A DNA stretch of 56,324 nt from Thiohalocapsa sp. (GTDB lineage: Bacteria > Pseudomonadota > Gammaproteobacteria > Chromatiales > Chromatiaceae): the NCBI GenBank assembly GCA_021736785.1, contig JAIPFF010000035.1, positions 1 to 56,324 on the forward strand, read 5' to 3'. Numbering within the stretch: the first letter of the stretch is position 1; each line of letters starts with the position of its first letter. The notes beneath the pieces are model-generated. The model ran no database searches. It worked only from the letters and a program-made list of their open reading frames with translations, and was not told where the DNA came from. Positions 14,643-30,791 of this stretch are shown in pieces. The translations under genes were made by a program, and so were the position numbers.

Positions 14643-14693
14643 GCGTCTATCGACAGGCAGGTTGACCGCTGGGAATCCGTGTACGCGGCGGGC

Positions 14694-15011: not shown

Positions 15012-15163
15012 GCCTGACATTCCTGATGAAGCTGGTTTTTGTCTCGGCGTCGGCCCGGTGCGAGGAGCCGCGGGACCGCCCGCATAACAGGTTCGCGTTT
15101 CATGATAACGCGGTTGCAGCGCCGGGTCTGCCCGGCTCCCGGCCCGGTCACGACGCGCGCCGG

Positions 15164-16537: not shown

Positions 16538-16739
16538 GGCGCAAGAAGCGGACGGAAACGGGAACGGCGGTTGGCGGGCGCGGACCGCGGTAGGTCACGC
16601 CTAGGTCAACCGAGATCGACCGACTGCATGGCGCCGGCCCGACCGATACTGCCGCCGGTCCGGAGGCAGGTGTCGCCTCGTCTCATGCCTCGAACGCCCC
16701 GGCAACGCAGCCGGGCGGGCAAGTGATACGTCAGGCGCA

Positions 16740-16765
16740 TGTCGCGGCCTAGCTCGGCCGCGACA
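16740..16765 (-). promoter_or_regulatory. Hairpin just behind the dsrP stop codon
   Basis: A perfect 10-base inverted repeat (arm TGTCGCGGCC at 16740-16749, partner 16756-16765) with a 6-base loop begins four bases after the dsrP stop. No U-tract follows in the dsr direction, so it is more likely an mRNA 3'-end stabiliser or processing site than an intrinsic terminator. Confidence 0.6.
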
Positions 16766-16769
16766 GCCG

Positions 16770-17999
16770 TCAAGCGGAGGCGGCGCCGGCCGCGGGAGCG
16801 ACGTCGCGGTCGGTCAATGACTCGGGCAGGAACTGCAGCACGCGGATGCCCACGGCCGTGATCAGGAGCCCCACCCCCACGCCGCCGAAGCCGAGCAGGA
16901 TCTCCGGGAAACTGGGCGAATACGGTGCAACTGCACCGCCGACGTCCCCCGGCGCGCCGAACTCGAGCACGGTTTTTCCGGGGAACATCTCCAGCGGATA
17001 GGCCTGACTGCCGATAATCACCACGTACATTGCGGCCAATCCGCCGGCGATCACCAGACCGGCCGCGGCGGCGATCCAGTTGCGCTCTTGCCCGAGCACG
17101 GGGTGGTAGATGATACCGAGCGGCACCAGGCCTCCGATCAACACCCAGCCGACCCAGAAAATGGCCGTGTAGATGCCGCCGGTGACGAGGATGAAGGTCT
17201 CGACATCCAGGTTTTTGGCCCCGTACAGCTTGGTCAGGTGATAGACCAGCGTGAAATACAACACCGCGGAGACGAACAAGCCGAGCAAATTCTTCAGCCG
17301 CTTGAGCATCACCGGACCGATGGGGCGGTCGTCGGCGTCGAAGCTGTAAAACAGGACGAGCATATAAACGGCGAGGCCGTAGGCGAATGACATGACAACG
17401 AACATCGGCGCCAGAATCGCCGTGTCGTACGCCTCGCGGCCGACCAAGAAGCCGAAGATAGAACCTGTACCGGTGGTCAGCGCCAGTCGCCAGAGAAACG
17501 CGAAAGTACCGACCGGCTTCATGAACTTGTTGCCCTTACGCTCGGCCATCGTCCAGAGGTATGCGATGGTCACGGCCAGGAAACCGGAGTACAGGAAGAT
17601 GTTCCAGGCAAAAATCGAGCTGAAGTTATAGGTCGTCATGGCGACCTGCAGCCGGTCCGGCCGCCCGAGATCGAGCACCAGCACCAGCAGACCGCCGACC
17701 AGTAAACCGGCCGCAAGCAAGCCCGATAAGCGACCCAGCGGTTTGTAGGCCGCGTTGTCGAATACGGTACCGATCGAGGCCACGTTCAACGCACCCGAGG
17801 CCGCCAGAATCAGGAACACGGCAAACACGTGAGGAACACCCCAGACGACGGAGTTGGTCATTCCCGTGACCCAGTGTCCCTCGTGCTCCATATACAGCGC
17901 GGCCATGCCGCCGATGGCGATAACCGACAGCAAAATGGCTAGCAAACCCCAGTAGCGCGCCGGTTCCAGGCGCCATTCCCGGTAGACGATTCTTTTCAT
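16770..17999 (-). CDS. dsrP: DsrP, NrfD-type integral membrane subunit
   Basis: The product has 409 residues with about ten hydrophobic segments and no cofactor motif, typical of the NrfD/PsrC family. DsrP is the quinone-interacting membrane subunit that pairs with the ferredoxin DsrO and the cytochrome DsrJ in DsrMKJOP. I chose the ATG at 17999 (MKRIVYREWRLEPAR), which has GGAG about ten bases upstream. The longer start at 18053 overlaps dsrO. The spacing to dsrO is 31 bases. Confidence 0.92.
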   Translation of the reverse strand: MKRIVYREWRLEPARYWGLLAILLSVIAIGGMAALYMEHEGHWVTGMTNSVVWGVPHVFAVFLILAASGALNVASIGTVFDNAAYKPLGRLSGLLAAGLLVGGLLVLVLDLGRPDRLQVAMTTYNFSSIFAWNIFLYSGFLAVTIAYLWTMAERKGNKFMKPVGTFAFLWRLALTTGTGSIFGFLVGREAYDTAILAPMFVVMSFAYGLAVYMLVLFYSFDADDRPIGPVMLKRLKNLLGLFVSAVLYFTLVYHLTKLYGAKNLDVETFILVTGGIYTAIFWVGWVLIGGLVPLGIIYHPVLGQERNWIAAAAGLVIAGGLAAMYVVIIGSQAYPLEMFPGKTVLEFGAPGDVGGAVAPYSPSFPEILLGFGGVGVGLLITAVGIRVLQFLPESLTDRDVAPAAGAASA

Positions 18000-18030
18000 A
18001 GGAGACTTCTCCGTCACTGTCGACGCGCCG

Positions 18031-18810
18031 TCAGATGCCGGAATAGCGCACACCGGTGTTCAGCCCGAGATCCTGGCGGATCTGCCTGCTGGGAACCTGC
18101 CTCAAGGCCTGACGCAGCGGTCCGTCGGGGTCGTTCAGGTCGCCGAATACGATGGCTTGATGGCCTTCCGCGTTGCACGCATCGGCGCAGGCGGTCGAGA
18201 TATCGCCCTCATCCAGCCGGTGGACACACAACGTACAGCTCTCTACGCAGCCTTTGCCGCGCGGGGCACGCGTCAGTTTCTGGTCCACTTTCTCGTGGAT
18301 GAAAGAGCGCGCCTTGTACGGGCACGCCATCATGCAATACCGACAGCCTATGCAGGTGTGCCGATCGACCAAGACGAGCCCGTCGGCGCGCTTGAACGAC
18401 GCACCCGTGGGGCAGACATCCACGCAAGGCGGATTCTCGCAGTGCTGACACATCAGCGGGAGGTTGGTGATCCGCCCGGTCGTGTTGTCCTGGAGCTTGA
18501 CCTTGCGAATCCAAACCGCGCGTTGGTTGTCCCACTTCAGCGGGTCGTCGCCGAGCGGCTTCGACTGCAGATTGAGACCGTTTTCGCGGTCGCACGCGCT
18601 GACGCAGGCACTGCAGCCGTCGGCGCACTTCGACGTATCGATCAACATGCCCCAGCGATGGAGATCGGTGACCGGCTCGGTGCGCGGAGCGGCAGTCGCA
18701 TCGACGGTATGCAAAACGACGCCGGGGGCAACAACCGCGGCAGAGACCCCCGCGGCGGCGCCGATAAAGCTGCGTCGGCCGTTGTCGATCTTCTCTTTGT
18801 CTGGCTTCAT
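18031..18810 (-). CDS. dsrO: DsrO, periplasmic iron-sulfur protein with Tat signal
   Basis: The product has 259 residues. The N-terminus carries a twin-arginine signal (GRRSFIGAAAG followed by a hydrophobic stretch). Many cysteines follow in ferredoxin patterns: CADGCSACVSACDR, CQHCENPPCVDVCPTG, CIGCRYCMMACPYKAR and CVESCTLCVHR, enough for about four [4Fe-4S] clusters. It is the periplasmic electron-transfer subunit of DsrMKJOP, between DsrJ and DsrP. It lies 15 bases behind dsrJ. Confidence 0.93.
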   Translation of the reverse strand: MKPDKEKIDNGRRSFIGAAAGVSAAVVAPGVVLHTVDATAAPRTEPVTDLHRWGMLIDTSKCADGCSACVSACDRENGLNLQSKPLGDDPLKWDNQRAVWIRKVKLQDNTTGRITNLPLMCQHCENPPCVDVCPTGASFKRADGLVLVDRHTCIGCRYCMMACPYKARSFIHEKVDQKLTRAPRGKGCVESCTLCVHRLDEGDISTACADACNAEGHQAIVFGDLNDPDGPLRQALRQVPSRQIRQDLGLNTGVRYSGI

Positions 18811-18825
18811 TGTGGTTTCGCCTAA

Positions 18826-19326
18826 CTACTGCTGGCTGCCTTCACGATGCGCCGGGGCGTCCGGCCCCGCCGCACGGGCAGCGAGGTCGATGCCCAAGTG
18901 CCCGTGCAGCGCGGCGGTCTCGTGGTTCCACGATTCGCCTTCCGGCACGGTCGCATGGCAGTCGAAGCAGTTCATTGTGACGGCGGCGTAGTCGTGACAG
19001 GCACTGCAGAACTGACCTTCGTCGGAGACGGACAAGGGCTGTCCCGACTCGTCGTAGCCGACGTGACAATCGACGCAGCCGGCAAGACTGTGCTTGGTCG
19101 ATCGGATGCCGCCGTAGACCGTGGTGTCGCGCTGATGCCGAATCACCTCGAAGTGGTTGCGCCGCATGTATTCGGTCGGTTCGACGCAGTTCTCCACCTT
19201 CGCCGCCTTCGAGCTCGGAAGCACGAAGTCGCCGACCTGCTCCGCCCGCGCGCCGGCCGAGGCGAGAAACGCCCCGGCCGCCGCGAGTACGAGCAGGCCA
19301 CTCTTAGTTATGGCTTTGATTGCCAT
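18826..19326 (-). CDS. dsrJ: DsrJ, triheme c-type cytochrome
   Basis: The product has 166 residues. An N-terminal hydrophobic signal or anchor (GLLVLAAAGAFLASAGARA) precedes three CxxCH haem sites: CVDCH, CSACH and CFDCH. In A. vinosum one haem is unusually ligated by His/Cys and the signal stays uncleaved as an anchor (family knowledge); a cysteine upstream of the haems (VENCVEP) is a candidate ligand. The ATG at 19326 has GGAGG seven bases upstream and is preferred over the one at 19341. It is the periplasmic redox subunit of DsrMKJOP. Confidence 0.93.
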   Translation of the reverse strand: MAIKAITKSGLLVLAAAGAFLASAGARAEQVGDFVLPSSKAAKVENCVEPTEYMRRNHFEVIRHQRDTTVYGGIRSTKHSLAGCVDCHVGYDESGQPLSVSDEGQFCSACHDYAAVTMNCFDCHATVPEGESWNHETAALHGHLGIDLAARAAGPDAPAHREGSQQ

Positions 19327-19373
19327 CGTCGCCTCCAGCAACTGCTGTGGAGTGGCTCATCGGCGCGCGTCCG

Positions 19374-21335
19374 TTACTCACCGAGGCCCATCTTGATGTA
19401 GCCGGTCGGGCAGACGTCGGCGCAAATGTGGCAACCGATGCATTTCGCGTAATCGGTGTCCACGTAGCGGCCGGTCGTGCGTTGGTCCTTGTTGACCCGG
19501 AAAACGGCGTCCTGCGGGCAGAAGATGACGCAGTTGTCGCATTCGAAGCACATGCCGCAGCTCATGCAGCGCTTGGCCTCGGCAACCGCTTCTTCCTCGC
19601 TGTAGCCGATGACACGCTCTTTGAAGTGGCCCAGGACCTCCTCGGAGCTCGGCACCTCTTCCTTGCGCAGGTAGCGCGCCTCGTACTTGAAGTGGCCCAG
19701 GAACAGCTCGTCGTGGGGGATCACCTCGGCGCCGGAGCGATCTTCGAAATTGTGGATCGCATAGTTGGCGTCGGAAGTGCCGCGCAGATCGCCGCTTTCC
19801 GCAACGCTGAACTGCTCGGGCGCCAGATGTGCCTCGCTCATTTTCGCCAGCAGGTCGAAGTGGTGCACGTCGACCTTCGGACGGCGCTTGTGCTCCGCCT
19901 GCTTGATGTAGTCGTCGATGGACTCCACCGCGATCCAGGCTTGACCGATGGCGGTGGTCAGCAAATGCGGGCGAATGATGTCGCCTGCGACGAAGTGACC
20001 GGGCTTGTCGGGCACCTGATAGTACTTGTCGGAGTTCATCAGGCCGCGACCGTTGTCGAGATCCTCGAGGCCGGTCAGGTCGCCGCCTTGGCCGATCGCC
20101 GAGACGACCAAGTCGGCCTCGAGCACACGCTCGGTACCTTCGACCGGCGTCGGCCTGCCGTCCTTCATCTCGCAGTCGGCAACCTTGAGGCCGATGGCGC
20201 GGCCGGCGTCGTTCTTCATGACTTCCAGCGGCATGACGCCATCGAGCACGGTGACGCCCTCGTGCAGCGCATCGTGCACCTCGTGCTCGGCCGCAGTCAT
20301 CTTGTCGCGGGTGAACAGCGAGGTCAGCGTGACTTCGGCGCCTTCGGCCGCGGCGGTCATGGCCGTGTCGTGAGCGACGTAGCCGTCGTGGATCACGGTC
20401 TCGGGCAGATCGCGGTTACCGGTCTTGGTGATGTGACCGAGACGGCGGGCGACCGACACAACGTCGATGGAGGTGTCGCCGCCGCCGACGCACACCACTT
20501 TGTCCGCCGTGACCTTCATGCGGCCTTCGTTGAACGCCTTCAGGAAGGCGACACCCGAGACGCAGTTGGGCGTGTTTTCCCAGCCGGGGACCGGCAGGCC
20601 GCGCCCGGACTGACAGCCGATGGCCCAGAGAATCGCGTCGTAGTCGTTTTCGAGCTGTTCGACGGTTACGTCGACGCCGACGCGGGCGTTCAGCTTCACC
20701 TCGATCTGCCCCATGTCCAGGATGCGGTTGATCTCCGCATCGAGGGCGTCACGCGGCACGCGGTAGCCGGGAATGCCGTAACGGAACATGCCGCCGAGGC
20801 CGTCGTTGGCCTCGAAAATCGTCGCGGCGTGACCCTTGCGCCGCAGCTGATAAGCCGCCGCGAGACCGGCCGGGCCACCGCCGATAATGGCGATGCGCTT
20901 GCCGGTATCTTCCGGAGCCGGCTCGAACTTGTAGCCGTTGGTGATCGCGGTGTCGCCGATGAACTGCTCGACCGCGTTGATGCCGACGAAGTCTTCGAGC
21001 TCGTTGCGGTTGCATCCGTCCTGACAAGGTGCCGGGCAGACGCGCCCCATCATGGAGGGGAAGGGATTCGCGTCGGTGGAGCGGCGGAAGGCGTACTCCT
21101 GCCAGGTTATGCCTTCGGGCGGCTGCTCGAGTCCGCGGACGATCTGCAGCCAGCCGCGGATATCCTCACCGGACGGGCAGCTACCCTGGCAAGGCGGCGT
21201 CTTGTGGACGTAGGTCGGGCACTTGTGGGAGGTGTCCTGAACGAAGATCTGCTGGGTCAGGTTGTCCCAGACATTGTCACCGTCCTCGAAACGGCGCCAG
21301 GAAAGCTTGTTCATTTCGTCGCTGGAAGTAGCCAT
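19374..21335 (-). CDS. dsrL: DsrL, NAD(P)H:acceptor oxidoreductase (iron-sulfur flavoprotein)
   Basis: The product has 653 residues, similar to the small subunit of glutamate synthase. The N-terminal cysteine set is CPAPCQDGCNRNELED. An FAD Rossmann motif IIGGGPAGLAAAYQLRR and an NAD(P) motif VCVGGGDTSIDV follow. A C-terminal two-cluster ferredoxin domain has CGMCFECDNCVIFCP and CIGCHICADVCPTG. DsrL binds DsrAB and passes electrons from sulfur oxidation to NAD+. The ATG at 21335 has AAGGAG upstream. It sits 113 bases behind dsrK, with a hairpin in the gap. Confidence 0.92.
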   Translation of the reverse strand: MATSSDEMNKLSWRRFEDGDNVWDNLTQQIFVQDTSHKCPTYVHKTPPCQGSCPSGEDIRGWLQIVRGLEQPPEGITWQEYAFRRSTDANPFPSMMGRVCPAPCQDGCNRNELEDFVGINAVEQFIGDTAITNGYKFEPAPEDTGKRIAIIGGGPAGLAAAYQLRRKGHAATIFEANDGLGGMFRYGIPGYRVPRDALDAEINRILDMGQIEVKLNARVGVDVTVEQLENDYDAILWAIGCQSGRGLPVPGWENTPNCVSGVAFLKAFNEGRMKVTADKVVCVGGGDTSIDVVSVARRLGHITKTGNRDLPETVIHDGYVAHDTAMTAAAEGAEVTLTSLFTRDKMTAAEHEVHDALHEGVTVLDGVMPLEVMKNDAGRAIGLKVADCEMKDGRPTPVEGTERVLEADLVVSAIGQGGDLTGLEDLDNGRGLMNSDKYYQVPDKPGHFVAGDIIRPHLLTTAIGQAWIAVESIDDYIKQAEHKRRPKVDVHHFDLLAKMSEAHLAPEQFSVAESGDLRGTSDANYAIHNFEDRSGAEVIPHDELFLGHFKYEARYLRKEEVPSSEEVLGHFKERVIGYSEEEAVAEAKRCMSCGMCFECDNCVIFCPQDAVFRVNKDQRTTGRYVDTDYAKCIGCHICADVCPTGYIKMGLGE

Positions 21336-21381
21336 GGATAACGCTCCTTAACGAGTCGAGCTGTCGCTTGGTCTTATTGGT

Positions 21382-21411
21382 GGTGCGCGCCGGCTGACGC
21401 GGGCGCTCACC
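21382..21411 (-). promoter_or_regulatory. Hairpin between dsrK and dsrL
   Basis: Arms GGTG-c-GCGCC (21382-21391) and GGCGC-t-CACC (21402-21411) pair with one central mismatch, nine base pairs in all. It lies about 38 bases behind the dsrK stop and about 47 before dsrL. No U-tract follows. It is the weakest of the intercistronic hairpins noted in this operon. Confidence 0.4.
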
Positions 21412-21448
21412 GCTAAATTTGAGAACGGCGTTGGTGGATGAGCCCGTC

Positions 21449-22987
21449 TCAGGCTGCTTCGTCGGCAGCGTCCTCTTCGTCATCGTCGTCCGTCGTCTGA
21501 CCCGTCAGGATCAGCGCGTTGGAGACAAGCTGGTGCACGCTGACGATCTGGTCCATATCCATGCCGTAGTACGGCAGCACCTTGGTGAACTGGCTCTTGC
21601 AGATGGCGCAGATCGCGGCCATGTGCGTGACACCCTTCTCCTGCATGACATTGTTCAAGGCCTCGACGCGGGGCTGCGCACCCTTGACGCGAATTTCCAT
21701 CAGGTCGTCGGTCAGCAGACCGCCGCCGCCGCCGCAGCAGAAGGTGCGGTCGCGGATGGTCTCCTCGTCCATGTCGTAGAAGTGGTTGCAGCTTGCCCGG
21801 ATCAGCGCCCGCGGAATGTCGAACTGGCCACCCGGCTTGTCGCCCATTCGCGAGGCACGGGCCACGTTGCACGAGTCGTGGTACGTGAGCACCATGTCGT
21901 CGTTTTGGCTCTTGTCGAGATTCAACTTGCCTTGCTTGAGCAGGTCGTAGGTGAACTCGCAGATGTGCTGCGGGATCGGGTAGCGCTGATCGAGGAAGTC
22001 CCACGGGCCCGCCAGCGTGTTCAGGAAGCTGTAGGCCACCCGCCAGGCGTGACCGCACTCGCCGAAGACGATGCGCTTGACCTTGAGCTTGATCGCGGCT
22101 TCGCGAATGCGCATCGCAACCCGGCGCATGTTCTCGTAGGAGCCGATGAACATGCCGAAGTTGGCCGCTTCCGAGGCGTACGAACTGAGCGTCCAGGACA
22201 CGCCCGCCTCGTGAAACACCTTGCCGTAGCCGATCAGGCCGTCGACATGGGGCTCGGCAAAAAAATCCGCGGACGGCGTCACCATCAGAATGTCGACGCC
22301 TTCGACGTCGAGGGGATATTTCACTTCGACGCCGGTCTCGTCGAAGACATCCTCTTCAAGGCCCTCCAGCGTATCCGCCAGCGCGGGTCCGGGCAGGCCC
22401 AAGTTGTTGCCGATCTTATAGACCTTGCCGATGATCTCGTTGCAGTATTTCTGCCCGACGCCGATGTGGTCCATGATCTCGCGGGCGGCCATGGAAATCT
22501 CGGCGGTGTCGATGCCGTAGGGACAGAACACGGAGCAGCGTCGGCACTGCGAGCATTGATGGAAATAGCTGTACCAGTCGTTCAGGACTTCCTCGGTGAA
22601 GTCCTCGGCACCCACCAGATTGGGAAAGAACTTGCCCGCAAGCGTGAAATAGCGCCTGTAGACCTTGCGCATCAGATCCTGCCGGCCAACCGGCATGTTC
22701 TTCGGATCCTTGGTGCCCAGGTAGTAGTGGCACTTGTCGGTGCACGAGCCGCACTTGACGCAGGAGTCCAGATACACGCGCAGCGAGCGATACTTACCCA
22801 GCAGGTCGCCCATCTTGTTGATGGCCTTGTCCTGCCAATCGTCGACGAGCTGGCCCGGAAAGCCCAGAGGTAGCTGAAAGTCCTCTTTCGACTTGTACGG
22901 AGCGGAGTGCGCCATGACCCCCGGTTCTATTTCGGGGATCTCGGCATACTGCTTGAGCTCGGGGACTTGGAAATCAGCCTTCGCCAT
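21449..22987 (-). CDS. dsrK: DsrK, HdrD-like catalytic subunit of DsrMKJOP
   Basis: The product has 512 residues. Two [4Fe-4S] motifs, CVKCGSCTDKCHYY and CSQCRRCSVFCPYG, lie in the first half. Heterodisulfide-reductase CCG-domain cysteines follow: CGHAWRVAY, the CNVARASRMG region and CCGGGGGLL. DsrK is the cytoplasmic subunit thought to reoxidise or reduce the DsrC trisulfide/disulfide and pass electrons to DsrM. The C-terminus ends in a strongly acidic tail (DDDDEEDAADEAA), which I cannot assign. The ATG is at 22987, 81 bases behind dsrM. Confidence 0.93.
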   Translation of the reverse strand: MAKADFQVPELKQYAEIPEIEPGVMAHSAPYKSKEDFQLPLGFPGQLVDDWQDKAINKMGDLLGKYRSLRVYLDSCVKCGSCTDKCHYYLGTKDPKNMPVGRQDLMRKVYRRYFTLAGKFFPNLVGAEDFTEEVLNDWYSYFHQCSQCRRCSVFCPYGIDTAEISMAAREIMDHIGVGQKYCNEIIGKVYKIGNNLGLPGPALADTLEGLEEDVFDETGVEVKYPLDVEGVDILMVTPSADFFAEPHVDGLIGYGKVFHEAGVSWTLSSYASEAANFGMFIGSYENMRRVAMRIREAAIKLKVKRIVFGECGHAWRVAYSFLNTLAGPWDFLDQRYPIPQHICEFTYDLLKQGKLNLDKSQNDDMVLTYHDSCNVARASRMGDKPGGQFDIPRALIRASCNHFYDMDEETIRDRTFCCGGGGGLLTDDLMEIRVKGAQPRVEALNNVMQEKGVTHMAAICAICKSQFTKVLPYYGMDMDQIVSVHQLVSNALILTGQTTDDDDEEDAADEAA

Positions 22988-23068
22988 GGTTCAACCTCAA
23001 ATACTGGGCCGCAGTTCTGTTCCGACCGAAATCACCGACGGCTGACTGCCGGCCGCCGCGCGCTGCGC

Positions 23069-23800
23069 TCACTCTTGTTCCAACCGCCGCGCCCAATTGG
23101 CCAAGTGACGCCGCTCGCGCGGGTTATCGGCTTGGTTGCGCGACGGGCTGAAGAACAGGCCGGGCGCATGCAGCAGCTTGCTGTACGGGAAGATGATCAT
23201 CAGCACCGCCACCAACAGCAGGTGCAGCATCAGCAGCGGATCGCCGGGCAATGTACTCACCTGACCTACATAGAGCCCCTGGAAGAACTCCTTCACGCGC
23301 ATGATGTCGGTGTGCGCGACAAAGCGCATCAGCAGCCCGCTGACGCCGATGGTGAGCAGCAGCACCAGAATCAGATGATCAGACAGCGCCGTGATATACC
23401 GCACGCGGTCGACCAGAAAGCGGCGCGCCCACAGCCCGGCGAGGCCGACGACCATCGCGATACCGCCGTAGACACCGAACGGCTGAATGAACTGAATCCA
23501 AACCGGAACCGGGTCGAGGAAGTAGCGCAGATGCCGGAGCGTGACCAGAAACAGGCCGAAATGGAAAATCCAGCCGAAGATCCAGATCCACTTGTTGCCG
23601 CGGAACAGGCTCTCGAAGAACACCACTTCGCGGGTCATGCGCAGGGCGACGCCGGTACGGGTGGTCGGTGCCGGCGTAGTAGGAATCTTCAGCGGCGCCG
23701 GGGTGCGTGCGTATTGGACGACCTTATTGATCAAGCCCGCAAGCAGCACGAAGACGGCGAAATAAAATAGATAAGCGTAGACGCTCGACAGAAACGACAT
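23069..23800 (-). CDS. dsrM: DsrM, membrane cytochrome b subunit
   Basis: The product has 243 residues with about five to six hydrophobic segments, like the gamma subunit of respiratory nitrate reductase (NarI). Histidines within membrane segments (WIFHFGLF, LRHLRYF, LMLHLLLVA) are candidate haem b ligands. It anchors DsrK and exchanges electrons with the quinone pool. The ATG is at 23800. The 114-base gap to dsrC holds two strong hairpins, so dsrM is probably expressed less than dsrC. Confidence 0.92.
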   Translation of the reverse strand: MSFLSSVYAYLFYFAVFVLLAGLINKVVQYARTPAPLKIPTTPAPTTRTGVALRMTREVVFFESLFRGNKWIWIFGWIFHFGLFLVTLRHLRYFLDPVPVWIQFIQPFGVYGGIAMVVGLAGLWARRFLVDRVRYITALSDHLILVLLLTIGVSGLLMRFVAHTDIMRVKEFFQGLYVGQVSTLPGDPLLMLHLLLVAVLMIIFPYSKLLHAPGLFFSPSRNQADNPRERRHLANWARRLEQE

Positions 23801-23830
23801 GTTTCCGCTACCTCAATCGGATCCGAAGAT

Positions 23831-23858
23831 GATCGAAGGCGGCTGGCCGCCCCCGATC
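23831..23858 (-). promoter_or_regulatory. RNA hairpin 2 between dsrC and dsrM
   Basis: The arms are GATCGAAGGCGGC (23831-23843) and GCCGCCCCCGATC (23846-23858). On the DNA plus strand two A.C mismatches interrupt the stem, but in the minus-strand transcript these become G.U pairs. That gives an unbroken stem of 12 pairs with a tetraloop only in dsr mRNA. No U-tract follows. Confidence 0.65.
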
Positions 23859-23865
23859 ATGCGGG

Positions 23866-23899
23866 CGCCTGCCCCCGAGCGAAGGCCCGGGATCAGGCG
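23866..23899 (-). promoter_or_regulatory. RNA hairpin 1 just behind the dsrC stop
   Basis: The outer stem is CGCCTG/CAGGCG (23866-23871 and 23894-23899). The inner stem in the transcript is CCCGGGC/GCUCGGG around a CUUC loop, with one G.U pair. It starts 15 bases after the dsrC stop and precedes a second hairpin. No U-tract follows, which favours a stabilising or processing role. Confidence 0.6.
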
Positions 23900-23914
23900 T
23901 CGCCGGCATGCGCG

Positions 23915-24247
23915 TCAGACGCAGCCGGTCGGCTTCGGCAGACCGGCGTAGCGGCAGGCCTGCTTGGCCGGGCCGTAAGGGAACAGGCCGTACAGGTACT
24001 TGCTGTTGCCCTTGTCCTTGCCCATCTTCTTGCCGACGGCCTTGGTCAGCACGCGCACGGCGGGAGCAATCTGATACTCCTCGTAGTACTCGCGCAGGAA
24101 GTTGATGATGTCCCAGTGCTCGTCGGTGAGCTCCAGGTCATCTTCTTTAGCCATGACCTCGGCGACGCCGGGCTCCCAGTCGTTGATGTTGGCGAGGTAG
24201 CCCTCTTCATCGGTCTCGAACGACTTACCGTTGACTTCGATTGGCAT
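23915..24247 (-). CDS. dsrC: DsrC, sulfur carrier protein
   Basis: The product has 110 residues. The flexible C-terminal arm has both functional cysteines in CRYAGLPKPTGCV: Cys98, and the penultimate Cys109, 11 residues apart as in true DsrC. DsrC receives sulfur from DsrEFH, is the trisulfide-forming substrate of DsrAB, and is recycled by DsrMK. The ATG at 24247 lies 33 bases behind dsrH. A second, cysteine-free copy is encoded at 30453-30791. Confidence 0.96.
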   Translation of the reverse strand: MPIEVNGKSFETDEEGYLANINDWEPGVAEVMAKEDDLELTDEHWDIINFLREYYEEYQIAPAVRVLTKAVGKKMGKDKGNSKYLYGLFPYGPAKQACRYAGLPKPTGCV

Positions 24248-24280
24248 GGTGATGCTCCTGTCGATTGAATGTTGAAAAAA

Positions 24281-24589
24281 CTACAACCAGGCCTGGACCT
24301 TGGCGTTCTCCGCGGCTAGATCCACGAAGCCGGCATAGTCCACGACACTGATACCTTCGATCACGCGGTCTTCGGAGAAGCCCCGGGCCTTCAGGTCAGG
24401 GCCCAGCACGTAGACCTTAGCCGAATCCAGCGCGCTTTTGATTTTCGGCTCGACGCTGGTCCCCTTCAATGCGGCGTAGACGCCGTCTTCCAGCAGCAAC
24501 ACCGCGGAGCCGCCGGCGACATAGCCCAGGCAGGTGTCCAGCGAGTTTTTCTCGAAGGGCGATTTGTTGACGGTATGCAGGGTGCTCAT
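24281..24589 (-). CDS. dsrH: DsrH, TusB-like sulfur relay subunit
   Basis: The product has 102 residues, a TusB/DsrH-type small alpha/beta protein. The conserved cysteine is in SLDTCLGYVAGG, near residue 20 as in the A. vinosum protein. It is part of the DsrE2F2H2 hexamer that hands persulfide sulfur to DsrC. It lies 11 bases behind dsrF, so the two are tightly coupled. Confidence 0.94.
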   Translation of the reverse strand: MSTLHTVNKSPFEKNSLDTCLGYVAGGSAVLLLEDGVYAALKGTSVEPKIKSALDSAKVYVLGPDLKARGFSEDRVIEGISVVDYAGFVDLAAENAKVQAWL

Positions 24590-24600
24590 CGGTTTCTCCG

Positions 24601-25011
24601 TCAGAAGCTGAAGACGACGTCGGAATCTTCCATGACCGCCGCCATCTCAGCGCGGCTGACGAGGTGTATGGAGTCCTTCTCCGCCCAATCCTCGTCCTCG
24701 TCTTCCCAGACCAAGTGCTGCAGATCGTCGAGCGTCAGGCCGCGCTCTTCCAGCGACTCCTTTTCGACGTAGATCTTCTTGACCTCGTAATCGCCGAGGG
24801 CCGCATAGGTGGGCGAGAAATTCTTCATGCCGATAGCGGCGGTGTCTTGGTTCTTCGTGAGCTGATAGACGCCATCGTCGATGAAGGCGAGGCTCACGTC
24901 CTGATCGAAGGCGGCACCGATCAGTACGACCTCCAGCGATTCCCACGCGTAGATCGTGCCGTAGGGCGCCCTGCGGTTCAGGTAGAGGAATTTCTTCACT
25001 GTTTCTGACAT
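24601..25011 (-). CDS. dsrF: DsrF, TusC-like sulfur relay subunit
   Basis: The product has 136 residues, a TusC/DsrF-type protein (KKFLYLNRRAPYGTIYAWESLEVVL). It has no cysteine, which fits the structural rather than catalytic role of this subunit in the DsrEFH hexamer. It starts at the ATG at 25011, 23 bases behind dsrE. Confidence 0.94.
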   Translation of the reverse strand: MSETVKKFLYLNRRAPYGTIYAWESLEVVLIGAAFDQDVSLAFIDDGVYQLTKNQDTAAIGMKNFSPTYAALGDYEVKKIYVEKESLEERGLTLDDLQHLVWEDEDEDWAEKDSIHLVSRAEMAAVMEDSDVVFSF

Positions 25012-25034
25012 TGTCGTGACTCCCCTTCCGCGGA

Positions 25035-25427
25035 TCAGTCGCCGAACACGACGAGGCGATCGGACTGGATCGCGGCCTCGACCAGCTGACCCAAGCCGGA
25101 AATTCGGAACTTGGGATGAATATTGGTGGCGTCCTTGCCGTTTCTTTGGGCTTCTCCGTCGTCGACGACACCGCGGCGCTGCGCCGCGGCGACACAGACG
25201 ACCATATCGAGGTCATGCTTCTCGGCCAGGTCGGCCCAGCGCTCGACGACGTTTCGATCGTCCTGGGGCGGCGTGGTCAGCCGCGTCGAGTTGTTGACGC
25301 CGTCGTGGTAGAAGAAGACACGAAAGATTTCGTGCCCCTTCTCCAAGGCCGTCTTCGTAAAGAAGTAGGCCGAATCCGACGCCTGGTGCTGGAAAGGTCC
25401 TTCGTTGATCTGGATGGAGAACTTCAT
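25035..25427 (-). CDS. dsrE: DsrE, TusD-like sulfurtransferase subunit
   Basis: The product has 130 residues. The start MKFSIQINEGPFQHQASDSAY is typical of TusD/DsrE. The active-site cysteine that carries the persulfide is in LDMVVCVAAAQRRGV. It donates sulfur to DsrC in the cytoplasm. It follows dsrB by 60 bases and starts the dsrEFHC relay block. Confidence 0.95.
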   Translation of the reverse strand: MKFSIQINEGPFQHQASDSAYFFTKTALEKGHEIFRVFFYHDGVNNSTRLTTPPQDDRNVVERWADLAEKHDLDMVVCVAAAQRRGVVDDGEAQRNGKDATNIHPKFRISGLGQLVEAAIQSDRLVVFGD

Positions 25428-25487: not shown

Positions 25488-26561
25488 TTAGAAGCGGATG
25501 TAGGACGAGCTGTTGAAGCTTGCCCGCGCGCCGCGCCAAGTGTCGATGTGATACTTGGTGAACGGAAGCTCCACTTCCTCGAAGAACCGCGGCCAACCGA
25601 TGCGCTCGATCCACTCGTTGACGCGCTCCCAGTCACGCGCACCTTCCTTGTAGGCCTTCAAGATACGCTTGACGATCGCGGTCGCCTCGGGCCAGCGCGG
25701 CGGATTGTTGGGGATACCGGCGGCGACCAGCTTCTGGAAGGTCGGCTTACCGCGGGCGTTGGAGTGGTTACCGCCCACCCAGATCGCCAGCTTGGAGTGC
25801 TCCGCATCGTTGATCTGCATCGGCGGGCACGGCGGATAGCAGGCGCCGCAGCAGATGCACTTGCGCTCGTCGACTTCCAGCGACGGCTTGCCGTTGACCA
25901 TGGCCGGACGAATCGCGGCAACCGGGCAGCGGGCCACGACCGAAGGACGCTCGCAGACGTTGGCCACGAGATCGTGATTGATCTTCGGCGGCTTGGTGTG
26001 CTGGACGTTGATCGCAATGTCGCCTTGGCCGCCGCAGTTGATCTGGCAGCAGGAGGTCGTGATGTGGACCCGGTTCGGCATGTTGGCGTTGCGGAACTCG
26101 TCGATGAGCTCGTCCATCATCGACTTGACGACGCCGGATGCATCGGTACCGGGGATGTCGCAGTGCAGCCAGCCCTGGGTGTGGGAGATCATCGTCACCG
26201 AGTTCTGGGTGCCGCCGACGATGAAGCCCGCGTCTTCCAACTCCTTGATGAGCGGGGCGACGCGGGATTCGTCGGTCACCATGTACTCGATGTTGGAGCG
26301 CAGCGTGAAATGCACGAAACCGTCGGCGAACTGGTCACCGATGTCGCACAGCTTACGCAGCGTAAAGACGTCCAGGATGCGCTGGGTGCCGGCCTTGACA
26401 GTCCAGATCTCGTCGCCACTATAGGCGACATGACGCAGCACGCCGGGACGCGGATGCTCGTGATATTTCCACTGACCAAAATTCTTACGCATCACCGGAT
26501 GCATGTACTGCCATGGGTCGGGGCAGCCGGTTTCGATGGGCTCGCGCATATCTTTAGCCAT
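25488..26561 (-). CDS. dsrB: DsrB, dissimilatory (reverse) sulfite reductase beta subunit
   Basis: The product has 357 residues. The siroheme/[4Fe-4S] region has TTSCCQINCGGQGDI. The ferredoxin domain has CICCGACYPPCPPM, with further cysteines in CERPSVVARCPVAAI. DsrB holds the catalytic siroheme of the DsrAB tetramer, which here should run in the oxidative direction (DsrC-bound sulfur to sulfite). The ATG at 26561 has GGAGG upstream. A strong hairpin lies in the 92-base gap behind dsrA. Confidence 0.96.
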   Translation of the reverse strand: MAKDMREPIETGCPDPWQYMHPVMRKNFGQWKYHEHPRPGVLRHVAYSGDEIWTVKAGTQRILDVFTLRKLCDIGDQFADGFVHFTLRSNIEYMVTDESRVAPLIKELEDAGFIVGGTQNSVTMISHTQGWLHCDIPGTDASGVVKSMMDELIDEFRNANMPNRVHITTSCCQINCGGQGDIAINVQHTKPPKINHDLVANVCERPSVVARCPVAAIRPAMVNGKPSLEVDERKCICCGACYPPCPPMQINDAEHSKLAIWVGGNHSNARGKPTFQKLVAAGIPNNPPRWPEATAIVKRILKAYKEGARDWERVNEWIERIGWPRFFEEVELPFTKYHIDTWRGARASFNSSSYIRF

Positions 26562-26644: not shown

Positions 26645-26653
26645 ATCAACGAT

Positions 26654-27910
26654 TTAGCCGGCGGCCTTTTCGGCCTGGCGCTCGAACCACTCCTCCGCGG
26701 CCTCGTCCCAGCCGTCCATTCGGACGTAGGAGCTCTGACGCGGATGGCTCAACATGTTCGGATCGGGCTCGATGCCGATGCCGTCGAGGAAGTTGGCGAG
26801 GCCGATTCGCTCGATCATCTCGCCGCAACGCTCGTGCTCCAGGCCGTTCTCGGCCCAGAAGTCGATGATGTTCTCGGCCATCTCGACCATTTCTTCGTAG
26901 TCTTCCTCGGTATCGAGCTTCCTGAACGGAACCACGACGGTGCCCATCAGATCGCCGATCTTCAGCGTCCGCTTGCCGCCGATCAGGATGGTCACGCCCT
27001 TGTCGTCGCCGGGATGCAGCGCCTTCGGCATGACGTTCAGGCAGTGCATGCAGCGCACGCAGTCACGATTATTGACAGCCAGAGTGTCGTCGTCGTTCAA
27101 CGACAGGGCCTGGGTCGGACAGCGGGTGACGACGTTGTCGATGATGTACTGACGACCCTTGGCCTTCACGTACGCCTTTACCTCTTCCTGATCGACCTTC
27201 ATGTCGTCGCGCCAGGTACCCAGCACGGCGAAGTCGGCACGCTCGATGGCGTTCTGGCAATCGTTGGCGCAACCGGAAACCTTGAATTTGAACTTATAGG
27301 GCAGCGCCGGGCGGTGAACGTCGTCAGTGAAGTTGTTCACCAGCATCCGGTGAGCCTTCAGCTCGTTGGTGCAGGACATCTCGCAGCGGGCCGCGCCGAC
27401 GCAGGACATGGCCGTACGCACGCAGGGGCCGGCACCGCCGAGATCCCAGCCGTACTCGTTGATCTCGTCGAAGAAGTGCTGGGTGGCTTGGGTGTCGGCG
27501 CCGATAAACATGATGTTGCCGGTCTGACCGTGGAAGGTCACCAGCCCGGAGCCGTGCTTCTCCCAGCTGTCGGCCAACTGGCGCAGCATCGCGGTGGAGT
27601 AATGGTTGCCCGCCGGCGGCTGCACGCGCAGGGTGTGGAACTCCCGGGACTTGGGGAACGCCTTACCGACCTCGGAGAAACGGGGGATGATGCCGCCGCC
27701 ATAGCCATAGACCGAAACCGTGCCGCCCTTCCAGTAGCCCTTACGGGTCTCGTAGGAGTGCTCGAGCTGGCCGAGCAGGTCGTTGGTCATCTCGTTGATG
27801 CGCCCGTCCGGATGCTCGTCGCGCAGCCGCTTGATGCCGGAGATGAAGCTCGGCCAAGGACCGTCCTCCAGCTGATCGATCATGGGGGTATGGTGCTTAT
27901 CAATCGCCAT
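26654..27910 (-). CDS. dsrA: DsrA, dissimilatory (reverse) sulfite reductase alpha subunit
   Basis: The product has 418 residues, normal for the family. Siroheme/Fe-S motifs are seen in CVGAARCEMSCTNE and CANDCQNAIE. The inserted ferredoxin domain has CPTQALSL and CVRCMHCLNVMPKAL. With DsrB it forms the alpha2beta2 enzyme oxidising stored sulfur. The ATG at 27910 has GGGAGAGA about eight bases upstream. It is the first gene of the operon; an inverted repeat about 200 bases upstream may be its operator. Confidence 0.96.
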   Translation of the reverse strand: MAIDKHHTPMIDQLEDGPWPSFISGIKRLRDEHPDGRINEMTNDLLGQLEHSYETRKGYWKGGTVSVYGYGGGIIPRFSEVGKAFPKSREFHTLRVQPPAGNHYSTAMLRQLADSWEKHGSGLVTFHGQTGNIMFIGADTQATQHFFDEINEYGWDLGGAGPCVRTAMSCVGAARCEMSCTNELKAHRMLVNNFTDDVHRPALPYKFKFKVSGCANDCQNAIERADFAVLGTWRDDMKVDQEEVKAYVKAKGRQYIIDNVVTRCPTQALSLNDDDTLAVNNRDCVRCMHCLNVMPKALHPGDDKGVTILIGGKRTLKIGDLMGTVVVPFRKLDTEEDYEEMVEMAENIIDFWAENGLEHERCGEMIERIGLANFLDGIGIEPDPNMLSHPRQSSYVRMDGWDEAAEEWFERQAEKAAG

Positions 27911-28514
27911 TTCGCTATCTCTCCCGTCGAGACAAGGACGTGAAAACCTGTTCGGGGCCAGCGCTCGACGCGCTTGCCGAGCCCCGAGTGGACATTCTTC
28001 GGCCGTCGCCGGGACCGGTGGCCCTGCCCGAGCGGCGGCGGTGATGCAATGTACGCGCCTTTGTGAAGCCCCGGTATTCCACCTTCGGGAGACCGGGAGC
28101 GAACCTTCTATCCCCTATGGGATAGTTGACCGTGTTGTTTTTTTTCTCGCCAACTCAAAGTGCTAGCGGCGAGGCAAGCGCATGGATGAACGGCAAGCGA
28201 GTCTACGCGGCGACTCGGCCTTGTGTCAATGTATCCTAATATAAGAGATTCCTGAATTCGGTACTTTCCCCAAGCCGAAGCAGCCCCTCGGCCACGAACC
28301 GCCGGGTGCATTGTTTTCGACGGCTGCCGACTTCATTTCCCGGCTCAGGCGGACGACTGACGACAACGACCGTTGGCGGGAGTTCCGCACCGGGCCGACG
28401 TTGCCGCGCGAGCTCGACGGACTCGCCGCAAGCCGACGGCCCCGGCGCAGCGATCCGGCGAAGGGCCGACTCCACGGGCGACCGGGCCGAAATCGGGCCC
28501 AGGGTAAAAATTCA
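27911..28514. promoter_or_regulatory. Divergent intergenic region between dsrA and the Cas6-like gene cluster
   Basis: These 604 bases should hold the main dsr promoter and the promoter of the rightward cluster. Seen features are an inverted repeat at 28108-28125, an uninterrupted T8 run just right of it (28140s), and an AT-rich stretch at 28227-28255 (GTATCCTAATATAAG) in otherwise GC-rich DNA. No good sigma-70 hexamer pair with correct spacing could be fixed. No gene is supportable here. Confidence 0.5.
28108..28125. promoter_or_regulatory. Inverted repeat upstream of dsrA, candidate operator
   Basis: CTATCCC and GGGATAG form a perfect 7-base inverted repeat with a 4-base CTAT spacer. It lies 198 bases upstream of the dsrA start codon. 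The symmetrical CCC/GGG half-sites in an AT context resemble sites of sulfide- or metal-responsive repressors in a general way only. I cannot name the regulator. Confidence 0.45.
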
Positions 28515-28706
28515 ATGTTGAAACTCAGTGAAATTCTCGTTTCAAGGAAAGATATAGAAAGCTTCGACGAGCTGATTGCCGCCGTGCAGGACACCGCACG
28601 CAACGGCGAGCGGTTCTTCCGCATGGACGTCAAGCCTCCGTATCCGGATACCCCCGAGGACTGGGAAGATCGCCTGGAAGCGGCCTTCAGCGGCCTGGTC
28701 CGCTGA
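28515..28706 (+). CDS. Small conserved-looking protein, function unknown
   Basis: The product has 63 residues, starting MLKLSEILVSRKDIESFDELI. It is predicted mostly helical, has no cysteine and no membrane segment, and has a WEDRLEAAF segment near the end. I chose the ATG at 28515; the frame is open further upstream but those residues are arginine-rich filler, and the start lies at the step to lower GC. It is the first gene of the cluster divergent from dsr. I do not recognise the family. Confidence 0.6.
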   Translation: MLKLSEILVSRKDIESFDELIAAVQDTARNGERFFRMDVKPPYPDTPEDWEDRLEAAFSGLVR

Positions 28707-28787: not shown

Positions 28788-29501
28788 ATGAACCGTTACG
28801 ACATCGCCAACCGCCTGCCGGATACGGCAGCCGATTCCATAGGAAACCCGGGAGTCCAGGAAGCCGCACTGGAGTCGCACCTGCTGGCTCTTCAGGAGCA
28901 CTACGATTCGCTCAAGCGCATCGGCGCAAAGCGCGAGGATGTCGCTGAGCTGAAGCTGCAAATGGCCCGAACCCTGGTCGGACTCGGCCGCGGCGACGAG
29001 GCCTGGCCGCTTGCGCGCGAGGCGTTCGACTCGTTCATGGCCAGCGAGGGCTTCGAGTCCGCGGCCGACTGCTGCGATGTGCTGTTCCGCGCCGAGCAGT
29101 CCGAGTCGTTGAGCGCGCTGGGCCAGGGCATTTGGCTCGCTGTCACGTACCCTATCGATCCGGAGCTGTCCATCGAGCTGCTCTCGCATGTCATCGACGA
29201 GACGCCGGACGAAGCGGACGGCGCAGCCGTCGCGGCCACCACCGCGCTGTTTTTGGCCGACGTGCGCGCCGAGGGCGTGCAGCGCGATAACCTGACGTTT
29301 TTCGCTTCGCAGCTACTCGGCGATGTCGCCCGGCGCCACAGCGGCGTCGATAGTCAAGAGGCGTTCGACCTCTGGCGCGACCGTCTGGAACTGCGAGAGC
29401 CGGAGAAGTTTCTGGTGCGGCTGCGAAATGTCGTCGACGTGCTGGTGCAGGACGACTGGTGGTTCGACCGCGAACAGTTACAGGCCAAGCTACCCGGCTG
29501 A
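28788..29501 (+). CDS. Helical, TPR-like hypothetical protein
   Basis: The product has 237 residues, acidic and almost entirely helical. Segments such as LKLQMARTLVGLGRGDEAWPLAREAFDSF and the following FESAADCCDVLF look like tetratricopeptide-type helix pairs. There is no signal peptide. It lies 81 bases behind the 63-residue ORF and 79 bases before the Cas6-like gene, on the same strand, so the three are probably co-transcribed. I do not recognise it; a role as scaffold or partner of the Cas6-like protein is only a guess. Confidence 0.7.
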   Translation: MNRYDIANRLPDTAADSIGNPGVQEAALESHLLALQEHYDSLKRIGAKREDVAELKLQMARTLVGLGRGDEAWPLAREAFDSFMASEGFESAADCCDVLFRAEQSESLSALGQGIWLAVTYPIDPELSIELLSHVIDETPDEADGAAVAATTALFLADVRAEGVQRDNLTFFASQLLGDVARRHSGVDSQEAFDLWRDRLELREPEKFLVRLRNVVDVLVQDDWWFDREQLQAKLPG

Positions 29502-29580: not shown

Positions 29581-30267
29581 ATGTTCTGGCAAGAAGACGA
29601 CCAAGCCACCGAGACACAGGTGCCCGACGACATCGTCGACGTGCTGTTCTCGTTGCAATGCCGCAGCATCCCCGTCGACCATGCGCACGCCCTGTCGCGT
29701 GCGCTGCTCGACGCCGCCCCTTGGCTCGACGATCCCGGCGCCGGCGTTCATACCATTCACGTAGCCGGCTCCCAGAACGGCTGGGAGCGGCCCGAGCACG
29801 GCAGCGGCCAACAGTTGCAGCTCTCGCGCCGAACCAAGCTGTGCATCCGCGTACCGAAGCAGCGGATCGCCGCGCTGAAGCAGGCCTTGGAAGGACACAC
29901 CATCGATGTGGGCGGCTCGGCGCTGCAAATCGGCACCGGCAAAGAACGTCTGCTGAGCAAGGAAAGTACGCTGTTCGCGCGCTACGTGGCGGGTCCCGCC
30001 ACCGACGACGAGGACGAATTCCTGCGCTGGGCCGCGCAGGAGCTCGCCGGTCTGGGCATCAAGGTGCGCAAGGCCCTCTGCGGCAAGCGCACGCCGCTGC
30101 ACACGGCGGACGGCGACATCGACACCCGCAGCCTGATGCTAGCGGATCTGACGGCGGAAGAATCCGTGCAGCTGCAGCAGCACGGCATCGGTCCGCATCG
30201 GGCAATGGGCTGCGGTCTGTTTATCCCGCACAAAGGCATCGACGCCGTGCACAAGCCAAGTAGATGA
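29581..30267 (+). CDS. cas6: Cas6/Cmx6-like RAMP protein (no CRISPR array nearby)
   Basis: The product has 228 residues. Its pattern matches the type I-MYXAN Cas6/Cmx6 family as I know it: an N-terminal LFSLQCRSIPVDHAHALSRAL with His34 and His36, a GVHTIHVAGSQNGW segment, LSRRTKLCIRVP, and the C-terminal LTAEESVQLQQHGIGPHRAMGCGLFIP, whose glycine-rich end is the RAMP G-loop. Cas6 enzymes cut precursor crRNA at repeat hairpins. No other cas gene and no repeat array is visible here; instead it sits between dsr and a DsrC paralogue. The ATG at 29581 has only a weak ribosome binding site. Substrate and activity are unknown. Confidence 0.68.
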   Translation: MFWQEDDQATETQVPDDIVDVLFSLQCRSIPVDHAHALSRALLDAAPWLDDPGAGVHTIHVAGSQNGWERPEHGSGQQLQLSRRTKLCIRVPKQRIAALKQALEGHTIDVGGSALQIGTGKERLLSKESTLFARYVAGPATDDEDEFLRWAAQELAGLGIKVRKALCGKRTPLHTADGDIDTRSLMLADLTAEESVQLQQHGIGPHRAMGCGLFIPHKGIDAVHKPSR

Positions 30268-30452: not shown

Positions 30453-30791
30453 ATGGCCATCGAGGTAAATGGCAAAAGTATCGAAACGACCGAGAGTGGC
30501 TATCTGGTCAACCCGGCCGACTGGGACGAAGACGTCGCCAAGATCATCGCCGACGGCGAAGGCATCGAACTGACCGATCAGCACTGGGACGTCATCAAAT
30601 ACTTGCGCGACGAGTATTTGAACAACAACCAGAACCAGCCGATGGAGCGCGCCCTCCTGAAAGACGTCGGCAAGATCTGGGGCTCGAAGCCCAGCAGCAA
30701 AGACGTCTATAAGCTGTTCCCGCTGGCACCCACCAAGCAGGGCACCAAGATCGCCGGCCTACCCGAGGTACAGCGAAAAGGCGGTTACTGA
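30453..30791 (+). CDS. Cysteine-free DsrC/TusE-family protein (RspA-type)
   Basis: The product has 112 residues and is clearly homologous to DsrC (MAIEVNGKSIETTESGYLVNPADWDEDVAK versus the dsrC product). The C-terminal arm reads KIAGLPEVQRKGGY: both functional cysteine positions are replaced and the whole protein has no cysteine. It therefore cannot carry sulfur as DsrC or TusE do and falls in the group called RspA (regulatory sulfur-related proteins). The ribosome binding site AGAGGAAA is good. Intrinsic terminators flank it on both sides, so it may be a single-gene unit. Confidence 0.88.
   Translation: MAIEVNGKSIETTESGYLVNPADWDEDVAKIIADGEGIELTDQHWDVIKYLRDEYLNNNQNQPMERALLKDVGKIWGSKPSSKDVYKLFPLAPTKQGTKIAGLPEVQRKGGY

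What the first reader, a model, noticed from the sequence alone, without database searches (positions are those of the whole stretch)
29581..30267. Orphan Cas6/Cmx6-like protein beside the dsr operon
The protein has the N-terminal paired histidines (34 and 36), the LTAEESVQLQQHGIG segment and the glycine-rich GPHRAMGCGLFIP end of the Cmx6 RAMP family, but no CRISPR array and no other cas gene is visible. It lies between a full sulfur-oxidation operon and a DsrC paralogue. A Cas6-family RNase moved out of CRISPR immunity to cut another hairpin RNA would be a new use of the fold.
Basis: partly seen in the sequence, partly recalled or inferred. Interest (0 to 1): 0.8.

Follow-up and report, generated by a model that had tools for sequence, protein, structure and literature searches.

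The report
Cas6 homologue tied to sulfur oxidation
A protein built like the RNA-cutting enzyme of CRISPR immunity sits, without any CRISPR beside it, next to the sulfur-oxidation genes of this bacterium, and goes along with those genes in nearly every relative examined, suggesting that an immune RNA enzyme was taken over for sulfur metabolism.

Summary
Confirmed and extended. Window 29581-30267 encodes a true Cas6/Cmx6-family protein (PF09559, E 6e-66; TIGR02807 above cut-off; confident AF2 model whose best PDB matches are Cas6). It is not an isolated curiosity: orthologues form one clade (support 100/99), apart from CRISPR-linked Cmx6, and co-occur almost one-to-one with dsr throughout the class: in 90 of 91 strong-dsrA genomes of one set (142), 59 of 60 of a second (129), and 5 of 5 of the class in a phylum sample, where 0 of 47 dsrA+ genomes of other classes have it. 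The gene usually diverges from dsrA, behind a small protein and before a DsrC paralogue that has lost its cysteines. No CRISPR array was seen at the dsr-linked loci scanned; the genome's own I-E and I-C systems carry their own processing enzymes. The canonical His is kept in one branch but is Tyr in a clade of the other, while basic residues and the RAMP glycine loop stay fixed. Most likely: a domesticated Cas6 that binds, and in many lineages probably cuts, an RNA in service of dsr expression. The RNA target was not found; two candidate elements do not track this gene. No paper on it surfaced in the library searched.

The parts
29581..30267 (+). dsr-linked Cas6/Cmx6-family protein (called cas6L here), 228 aa
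   Evidence: PF09559 5.9e-66, TIGR02807 1.3e-34, AF2 pLDDT 92.6, Foldseek 8fcj_B E 1.2e-16
30453..30791 (+). DsrC paralogue without cysteines, C-terminus ..KGGY (called dsrC2 here)
   Evidence: PF04358 6.6e-35; 106 of 114 homologues at this place have no Cys, 8 have one
28515..28706 (+). conserved small protein, about 63 aa (called orf60 here), no Pfam match
   Evidence: homologue upstream of cas6L in 119 of 136 loci; no Pfam family
28788..29501 (+). conserved all-helical, TPR-like repeat protein, 237 aa, no Pfam match
   Evidence: AF2 model pLDDT 92.6, all helix; no PDB match with E <= 0.001, weak TPR and designed-repeat hits
26654..27910 (-). dsrA, divergent from the cassette
   Evidence: TIGR02064 3.2e-199
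25488..26561 (-). dsrB (name recalled)
   Evidence: weaker match of TIGR02064 at 25548-26378; order conserved in relatives
13515..25427 (-). rest of the dsr operon (E, F, H, C, M, K, L, J, O, P, N and possibly S; names recalled)
   Evidence: order of the part within reach conserved in relatives; Pfam DsrC, Fer4, Pyr_redox_2, NrfD, GATase_3 on members scanned, none on 13515-14642
28109..28124 (.). palindrome TATCCC-N4-GGGATA upstream of dsrA, probable operator (context; not shown to involve cas6L)

Best explanation
The gene is a Cas6-family protein that left CRISPR and became a dedicated partner of the oxidative Dsr system. SHOWN here: family membership, predicted fold, a single dsr-linked clade, near one-to-one co-occurrence with dsr within the class, a conserved divergent cassette, purifying selection, no array at the dsr-linked loci scanned. 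INFERRED: it binds a specific RNA through the Cas6 surface (invariant Arg84, Arg90, Lys218 and the C-terminal Gly-rich loop), and in lineages that keep His34 it cuts that RNA, as Cas6 does. The RNA most likely belongs to dsr expression (dsr mRNA, its leader, or an antisense or small RNA from the divergent region). The cysteine-free DsrC paralogue, which cannot carry sulfur the way DsrC does, and the small protein probably act as its partners or sensors, linking sulfur-relay state to dsr transcript processing or stability. In the clade where His34 became Tyr, recognition without canonical catalysis may suffice.
For: Family and fold. Co-occurrence: of 142 relatives 95 have it and 91 have strong dsrA (E < 1e-60), 90 both; among the 55 genomes of other families 16 of 16 with strong dsrA and 0 of 39 without. 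Second branch: of 129, 62 have it, 60 have strong dsrA, 59 both; 56 of the 59 are divergent within 2.5 kb of dsrA. Phylum sample of 378: 5 have it, exactly the 5 dsrA+ genomes of the class. Cassette: dsrA upstream and divergent in 116 of 136 loci; small protein in 119 and DsrC paralogue in 114 of 136; these loci are not 136 independent species. One clade against CRISPR Cmx6, 100/99. R84, R90, E144 and K218 in 70 of 70 dsr-linked representatives; R84, E144 and K218 are not fixed in CRISPR Cmx6, R90 is. Median dN/dS 0.18 over 44 close pairs, not independent of each other; cas6L and dsrA distances correlate at r 0.78, 0 of 999 permutations as high. DsrC2: 106 of 114 without Cys. A His-less Cas6 is an authentic enzyme in Sulfolobus, and its authors stress chaperone-like RNA recognition (PMC3652601, abstract and outline seen).
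Against: No RNA target was identified. The hairpin in the dsrA-dsrB spacer occurs also in some dsr+ genomes without cas6L and is missing in some with it. The dsrA operator persists in G047, which lacks cas6L. cas6L lies away from dsr in at least five genomes (G060, G067, G095, G118, G128), so co-transcription is not required. His34 is Tyr in 22 and Asn in 1 of 32 second-branch loci. Joint inheritance with dsrA could reflect shared species history alone. No expression or biochemical data.
Confidence: 0.5

Rival explanations
1. It is a crRNA-processing nuclease acting in trans for CRISPR arrays elsewhere in the genome; its place by dsr is historical.
For: Cmx6 family and retained His34. Cas1 is more frequent in genomes with cas6L (62 of 95 against 12 of 47, Fisher p 1.3e-5), though both are concentrated in the home family. 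Single cas6 genes detached from cas cassettes are mentioned in print (PMC3575380, passages seen).
Against: 33 of 95 genomes with cas6L have no Cas1 match at E <= 0.001, among them G015, G016, G019, G050 and G071, listed at 99-100% completeness. The own genome's I-E has its own CasE and its I-C has Cas5c. Four relatives hold both cas6L and a separate Cmx6 6-9 kb from Cas1, with an array beyond. Presence follows dsr far more tightly than Cas1.
Confidence: 0.05
2. It serves an RNA outside dsr expression, for instance a tRNA linked to Tus-like thiolation, and is kept with dsr because both draw on the same sulfur relay.
For: DsrC is homologous to TusE and DsrEFH to TusBCD, a relay for tRNA 2-thiouridine (PMC3397948, passages seen); a DsrC paralogue is the frequent neighbour.
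Against: The paralogue has lost the cysteines needed for sulfur transfer in 106 of 114 loci. cas6L is absent from nearly all dsrA-negative genomes sampled, which also modify tRNA (general knowledge, not tested).
Confidence: 0.2
3. It has become a pure protein-protein or scaffold component of the Dsr machinery and no longer handles RNA.
For: His34 replaced in 23 of 32 second-branch loci; adjacency to a DsrC paralogue.
Against: RAMP glycine loop and basic residues stay fixed also in the His-less clade; His34 is fixed in 125 of 126 distinct first-branch proteins.
Confidence: 0.15
4. It processes the stem-loop in the dsrA-dsrB spacer of the dsr mRNA.
For: 34 of 98 spacers have an unbroken stem of 9 pairs or more (G-U allowed), against 5.5% of base-shuffled spacers; the stem sequence differs between genera. 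In 20 dsr loci of other classes, whose genomes lack cas6L, the figure is 4 of 20, so such stems are somewhat commoner with cas6L.
Against: Among those 20, 3 of the 5 with the most similar dsrA have such stems without cas6L, and loci with cas6L such as L054 and L066 (Allochromatium) have spacers of 51 nt without one.
Confidence: 0.1

Closest known systems
Cas6/Cmx6 of type I-MYXAN and related CRISPR systems (TIGR02807/PF09559)
   Same: Family profile, RAMP glycine loop, DH motif at helix 1, similar length
   Different: No array or cas genes at the dsr-linked loci scanned; own clade; linked to dsr; Arg84, Glu144, Lys218 fixed
Cas6 of the type I-B CAST Cascade (PDB 8fcj)
   Same: Best structural and PDB sequence match (E 1.2e-16 by Foldseek, 1.1e-10 by phmmer)
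   Different: Part of an RNA-guided transposition complex; 22% identity
Sulfolobus Cas6 Sso1437
   Same: Lacks the canonical histidine, as does the Tyr34 clade (PMC3652601 abstract)
   Different: A CRISPR enzyme
DsrC/TusE family
   Same: The neighbouring gene dsrC2 is a member (PF04358, TIGR03342)
   Different: No cysteines in 106 of 114, so no sulfur carrier; the label RspA for such proteins is recalled, and no held paper joins it with DsrC and dsrAB

Membership tests
Cas6/Cmx6 (PF09559, TIGR02807) | Profile match above curated cut-off | tested here: met
   222.5 against 26.7 bits; 119.9 against 98.85 bits
Cas6/Cmx6 (PF09559, TIGR02807) | Cas6 fold | tested here: met
   AF2 pLDDT 92.6; ranks 1-39, 43 and 44 of the PDB search are Cas6/Cse3 entries or Cascade chains, 40-42 chains of type I-E HNH Cascade; the subunit is not named for the Cascade chains
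Cas6/Cmx6 (PF09559, TIGR02807) | C-terminal glycine-rich RAMP loop | tested here: met
   G202, G204, G210, G212 kept
Cas6/Cmx6 (PF09559, TIGR02807) | Catalytic-type histidine | tested here: met
   H34 here and in 125 of 126 distinct first-branch proteins; Tyr or Asn in 23 of 32 second-branch loci
CRISPR-associated function (crRNA maturation) | Adjacent array or cas operon | tested here: not met
   No array in the window; among the cas6L loci held an array-like repeat was seen only at L112, unlinked to dsr, about 7 kb away and not examined; the loci were not scanned
CRISPR-associated function (crRNA maturation) | Cleaves a CRISPR repeat | not testable with these tools
   needs biochemistry
Functional DsrC (dsrC2 neighbour) | Two C-terminal cysteines | tested here: not met
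   106 of 114 without any Cys, 8 with one; 3 of 114 have a Cys in the last 15 residues

The most novel reading that the evidence does not exclude
A CRISPR Cas6 was domesticated once, near the origin of oxidative Dsr in this class, into an almost obligatory RNA-level component of sulfur oxidation: with a cysteine-free DsrC as sensor and a small protein as partner it recognises an RNA of the dsr locus and sets the processing or stability of dsr transcripts. One lineage later dropped the catalytic histidine and kept recognition only.
Probability: 0.4. Interest if true: 0.9.

Novelty: new variant of a known kind. Interest (0 to 1): 0.82.

Why it matters
Cas6 is treated as a CRISPR enzyme, and the family models would label this gene as such. 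A clade kept with dsr over two deep branches of a class would be a clear case of an immune RNA nuclease fixed in energy metabolism. It also names overlooked genes (cas6L, the small protein, the cysteine-free DsrC) in a heavily studied pathway and makes RNA-level control of sulfur oxidation directly testable.

Tried and rejected
1. CRISPR explanation: arrays and cas genes were sought in the window, at the cas6L loci then held and in the own genome; rejected as above. The array scan looked for exact 20-mers at 50-95 bp spacing, three copies or more; many loci are short.

2. Palindrome TATCCC-N4-GGGATA upstream of dsrA as the Cas6 target: found with at most one mismatch in 91 of 111 distinct dsrA upstream regions, 0 in 20 rounds of shuffles. 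By eye it lies upstream of a -10-like box. With at most two mismatches it is in 6 of 105 cas6L-dsrC2 gaps, against 0.4 in shuffles. Of seven genomes where cas6L is away from dsr, absent or doubtful, dsrA keeps it in four (L186, L188, L189, L191; none in L187 and L190, a doubtful one in L192), and none of the cas6L contigs without dsr has it. Taken as a DNA operator not tied to cas6L.

3. dsrA-dsrB spacer hairpin: see rivals. The z-scores are unusable where the shuffles had almost no variance; the shuffles keep base composition only.

4. Similarity of the small proteins of the two branches (orf60 against DUF6967): suggestive only. hmmsearch best E 0.031, hhalign E 0.006 with probability 6%. Not claimed as homology.

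5. The 'TPR' count is inflated in L182-L185 by a merged cluster that holds TauD-like proteins; the counts used come.

6. Limits: dsrA presence was set at E < 1e-60. Five first-set genomes with cas6L fall below it: G011, G020, G034 have dsrA pieces on the same contig (L144, L135, L159), G048 and G059 none. Second set: G536, G541, G589 have cas6L and a dsrA fragment on the same contig; G586 has a dsrA fragment (2.4e-34) and no cas6L; its contig was fetched (L256) but not analysed. G551 (dsrA, no cas6L) has a contig that ends about 550 bp beyond dsrA. G047 is the one clear exception. In one search only up to seven first-look candidates per genome were scored. Sets contain incomplete genomes, and some loci are the same species from two collections (143 extracted proteins, 137 distinct). 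Second-branch residues were read in 32 of the 63 genomes with a match there.

7. G087 (L137, L192) may be one locus split by a contig break and is not counted as unlinked.

Full report
THE OBSERVATION. The ORF at 29581-30267 (+) gives 228 aa and matches PF09559 Cas6 at 5.9e-66 and TIGR02807 at 1.3e-34, above both curated cut-offs; six PADLOC Cas6 models match at 7.3e-22 or better. The conserved N-terminus M-x-W supports the start at 29581 rather than the longer ORF from 29323. The AF2 model from a 62-row alignment has mean pLDDT 92.6 and pTM 0.88. Foldseek against PDB puts Cas6 of the type I-B CAST complex first (8fcj_B, E 1.2e-16, TM 0.74); the first 44 ranks are Cas6/Cse3 entries or chains of Cascade complexes whose subunit is not always named.

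NOT A CRISPR GENE BY CONTEXT. No array-like repeat lies in the window. The own genome (5.2 Mb, 99.95% complete) has one PF09559 match, this one. Its CRISPR loci are elsewhere: a type I-E operon with its own CasE, and a type I-C operon with Cas5c, so neither should need this protein. Four relatives (G006, G052, G067, G084) carry both the dsr-type gene and a distant Cmx6 6-9 kb from Cas1, with arrays beyond. Of 95 relatives with cas6L, 33 show no Cas1 at E <= 0.001. On the other side, Cas1 is commoner with cas6L (62 of 95) than without (12 of 47).

CO-OCCURRENCE WITH DSR. In 142 relatives the protein is found in 95 and dsrA (TIGR02064, E < 1e-60) in 91; 90 have both. The five with cas6L only are G011, G020 and G034, with dsrA pieces on the same contig, and G048 and G059, with none. 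The one with dsrA only is G047. Among the 55 genomes from other families of the class, 16 have strong dsrA and the same 16 have cas6L. In 129 relatives of G501, a distant branch of the class, cas6L is in 62 and strong dsrA in 60, both in 59; the three without strong dsrA have dsrA fragments on the same contig, G551's contig ends just past dsrA, and G586 has a dsrA fragment without cas6L. In 378 genomes drawn across the phylum, 52 pass the dsrA cut-off; cas6L is found in 5, exactly the 5 dsrA+ genomes of this class, and in none of the other 47. So the link belongs to this class, not to Dsr in general.

ARRANGEMENT. In 116 of 136 loci dsrA lies upstream, divergent. A small protein precedes cas6L in 119 of 136 and a DsrC paralogue follows in 114 of 136; some of the missing ones are contig ends, and some loci are the same species twice. 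A 237-aa helical-repeat protein sits between in most first-branch loci. In the second branch a different small protein (one member scanned: DUF6967, PF22295) was found with a profile in 31 of 32 loci, all but L250, and directly before cas6L in the four read in detail; 56 of 59 cas6L genes diverge from dsrA at 455-1335 bp between matches. Where the arrangement is broken, cas6L lies without the other genes sought (L041, L155, L148) or with the small protein (L112, L130), while dsr stands elsewhere. The DsrC paralogue has no cysteine in 106 of 114 loci (one in 8) and typically ends in KGGY, so it should not carry sulfur as DsrC does (role of the cysteines: PMC3397948, passages seen).

ONE CLADE UNDER CONSTRAINT. 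A tree of 86 proteins puts all 70 dsr-linked representatives of both branches on one side of a branch with support 100/99, against CRISPR Cmx6 from four relatives, six further paralogues and six cyanobacterial plasmid proteins annotated next to cas3. The bootstrap had not fully settled, and the second-branch proteins are not one clade by themselves. Distances of cas6L and dsrA correlate over 87 loci (r 0.78, 0 of 999 permutations), as expected for joint inheritance, though shared species history alone would also give this. Median dN/dS is 0.18 over 44 close pairs.

RESIDUES. His34, in the position of the catalytic histidine by family resemblance, is kept in 125 of 126 distinct first-branch proteins. 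In the second branch it is kept in 9 of 32 loci, Tyr in 22, which form one clade (100/99), and Asn in 1. Arg84, Arg90, Glu144 and Lys218 are kept in 70 of 70 dsr-linked representatives and the glycine loop in nearly all, the Tyr clade included. This argues for a retained RNA-binding surface with dispensable canonical catalysis; Sulfolobus Cas6 shows that a His-less Cas6 can be an authentic enzyme (PMC3652601 abstract). That these residues touch RNA is inference; no complex was modelled.

TARGET SEARCH. Intergenic regions were screened for conserved structure. Two elements turned up. First, a palindrome TATCCC-N4-GGGATA upstream of dsrA, in 91 of 111 distinct regions with at most one mismatch (0 in shuffles), followed, by eye, by a second degenerate copy and a -10-like box; in the own genome the only perfect copy is at dsrA. 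It persists without cas6L in G047 and is absent from the cas6L contigs without dsr, so it looks like a DNA operator. Second, a stem-loop in the dsrA-dsrB spacer: 34 of 98 spacers at cas6L loci and 4 of 20 in other classes without cas6L, 3 of them among the 5 with the most similar dsrA. Neither is a demonstrated target.

KNOWN OR NEW. Searches of the held open-access library for Cmx6 + dsr, Cas6 + 'dsr operon', RspA + DsrC + dsrAB, and Alvin_1247-1250 gave no paper. Cas6 + dsrA + DsrC + Chromatiaceae gave two papers and Cas6 + 'dissimilatory sulfite reductase' five, one of them shared; I read passages of three, which treat CRISPR and dsr apart, and saw the other three as a listing only. A search for orphan, standalone or Cas6-like terms listed 26 papers, of which I saw passages of one (PMC3575380) and the abstract of another (PMC3652601). 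DUF6967, PF09559 and TIGR02807 occur in no held paper. Subscription papers on the dsr promoter, such as Grimm et al. 2010 (seen only as a reference), are not in the library, so prior mention there cannot be excluded.

VERDICT. The linkage and the non-CRISPR nature are well supported. The mechanism, RNA recognition or cleavage in service of dsr expression, is the most economical reading but unproven.

Noticed in passing
window 28109-28124 and dsrA upstream regions of relatives: Conserved palindrome TATCCC-N4-GGGATA plus, by eye, a second degenerate copy before a -10-like box: a likely two-site operator of the dsr promoter.
   Followed up: partly
window 26562-26653 and dsrA-dsrB spacers: Strong stem-loop between dsrA and dsrB in many relatives, with stem sequence differing between genera, also in some cas6L-free genomes.
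   Followed up: partly
L116 upstream of orf60; L184 downstream of dsrC2; L255:1726-2631: A TauD/TfdA-like dioxygenase is near the dsr cassette in several loci, between dsrA and the small protein in L116 and after dsrC2 in L184; Pfam-scanned for L184 and L255 only.
   Followed up: no
L170-L174: A second group of Cas6-family proteins in same-genus genomes, no CRISPR array in the fetched stretches; in L173 near a WYL regulator and a Dus gene, with no cas gene among the neighbours scanned.
   Followed up: partly
L184 (about 1 kb after the cas6L start), L062: A conserved protein of about 200 aa lies downstream of dsrC2 in several loci; the L184 copy has no Pfam match.
   Followed up: no
L112 around 15338: Array-like repeat, 6 copies, about 7 kb from an unlinked cas6L; nature not examined.
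   Followed up: no
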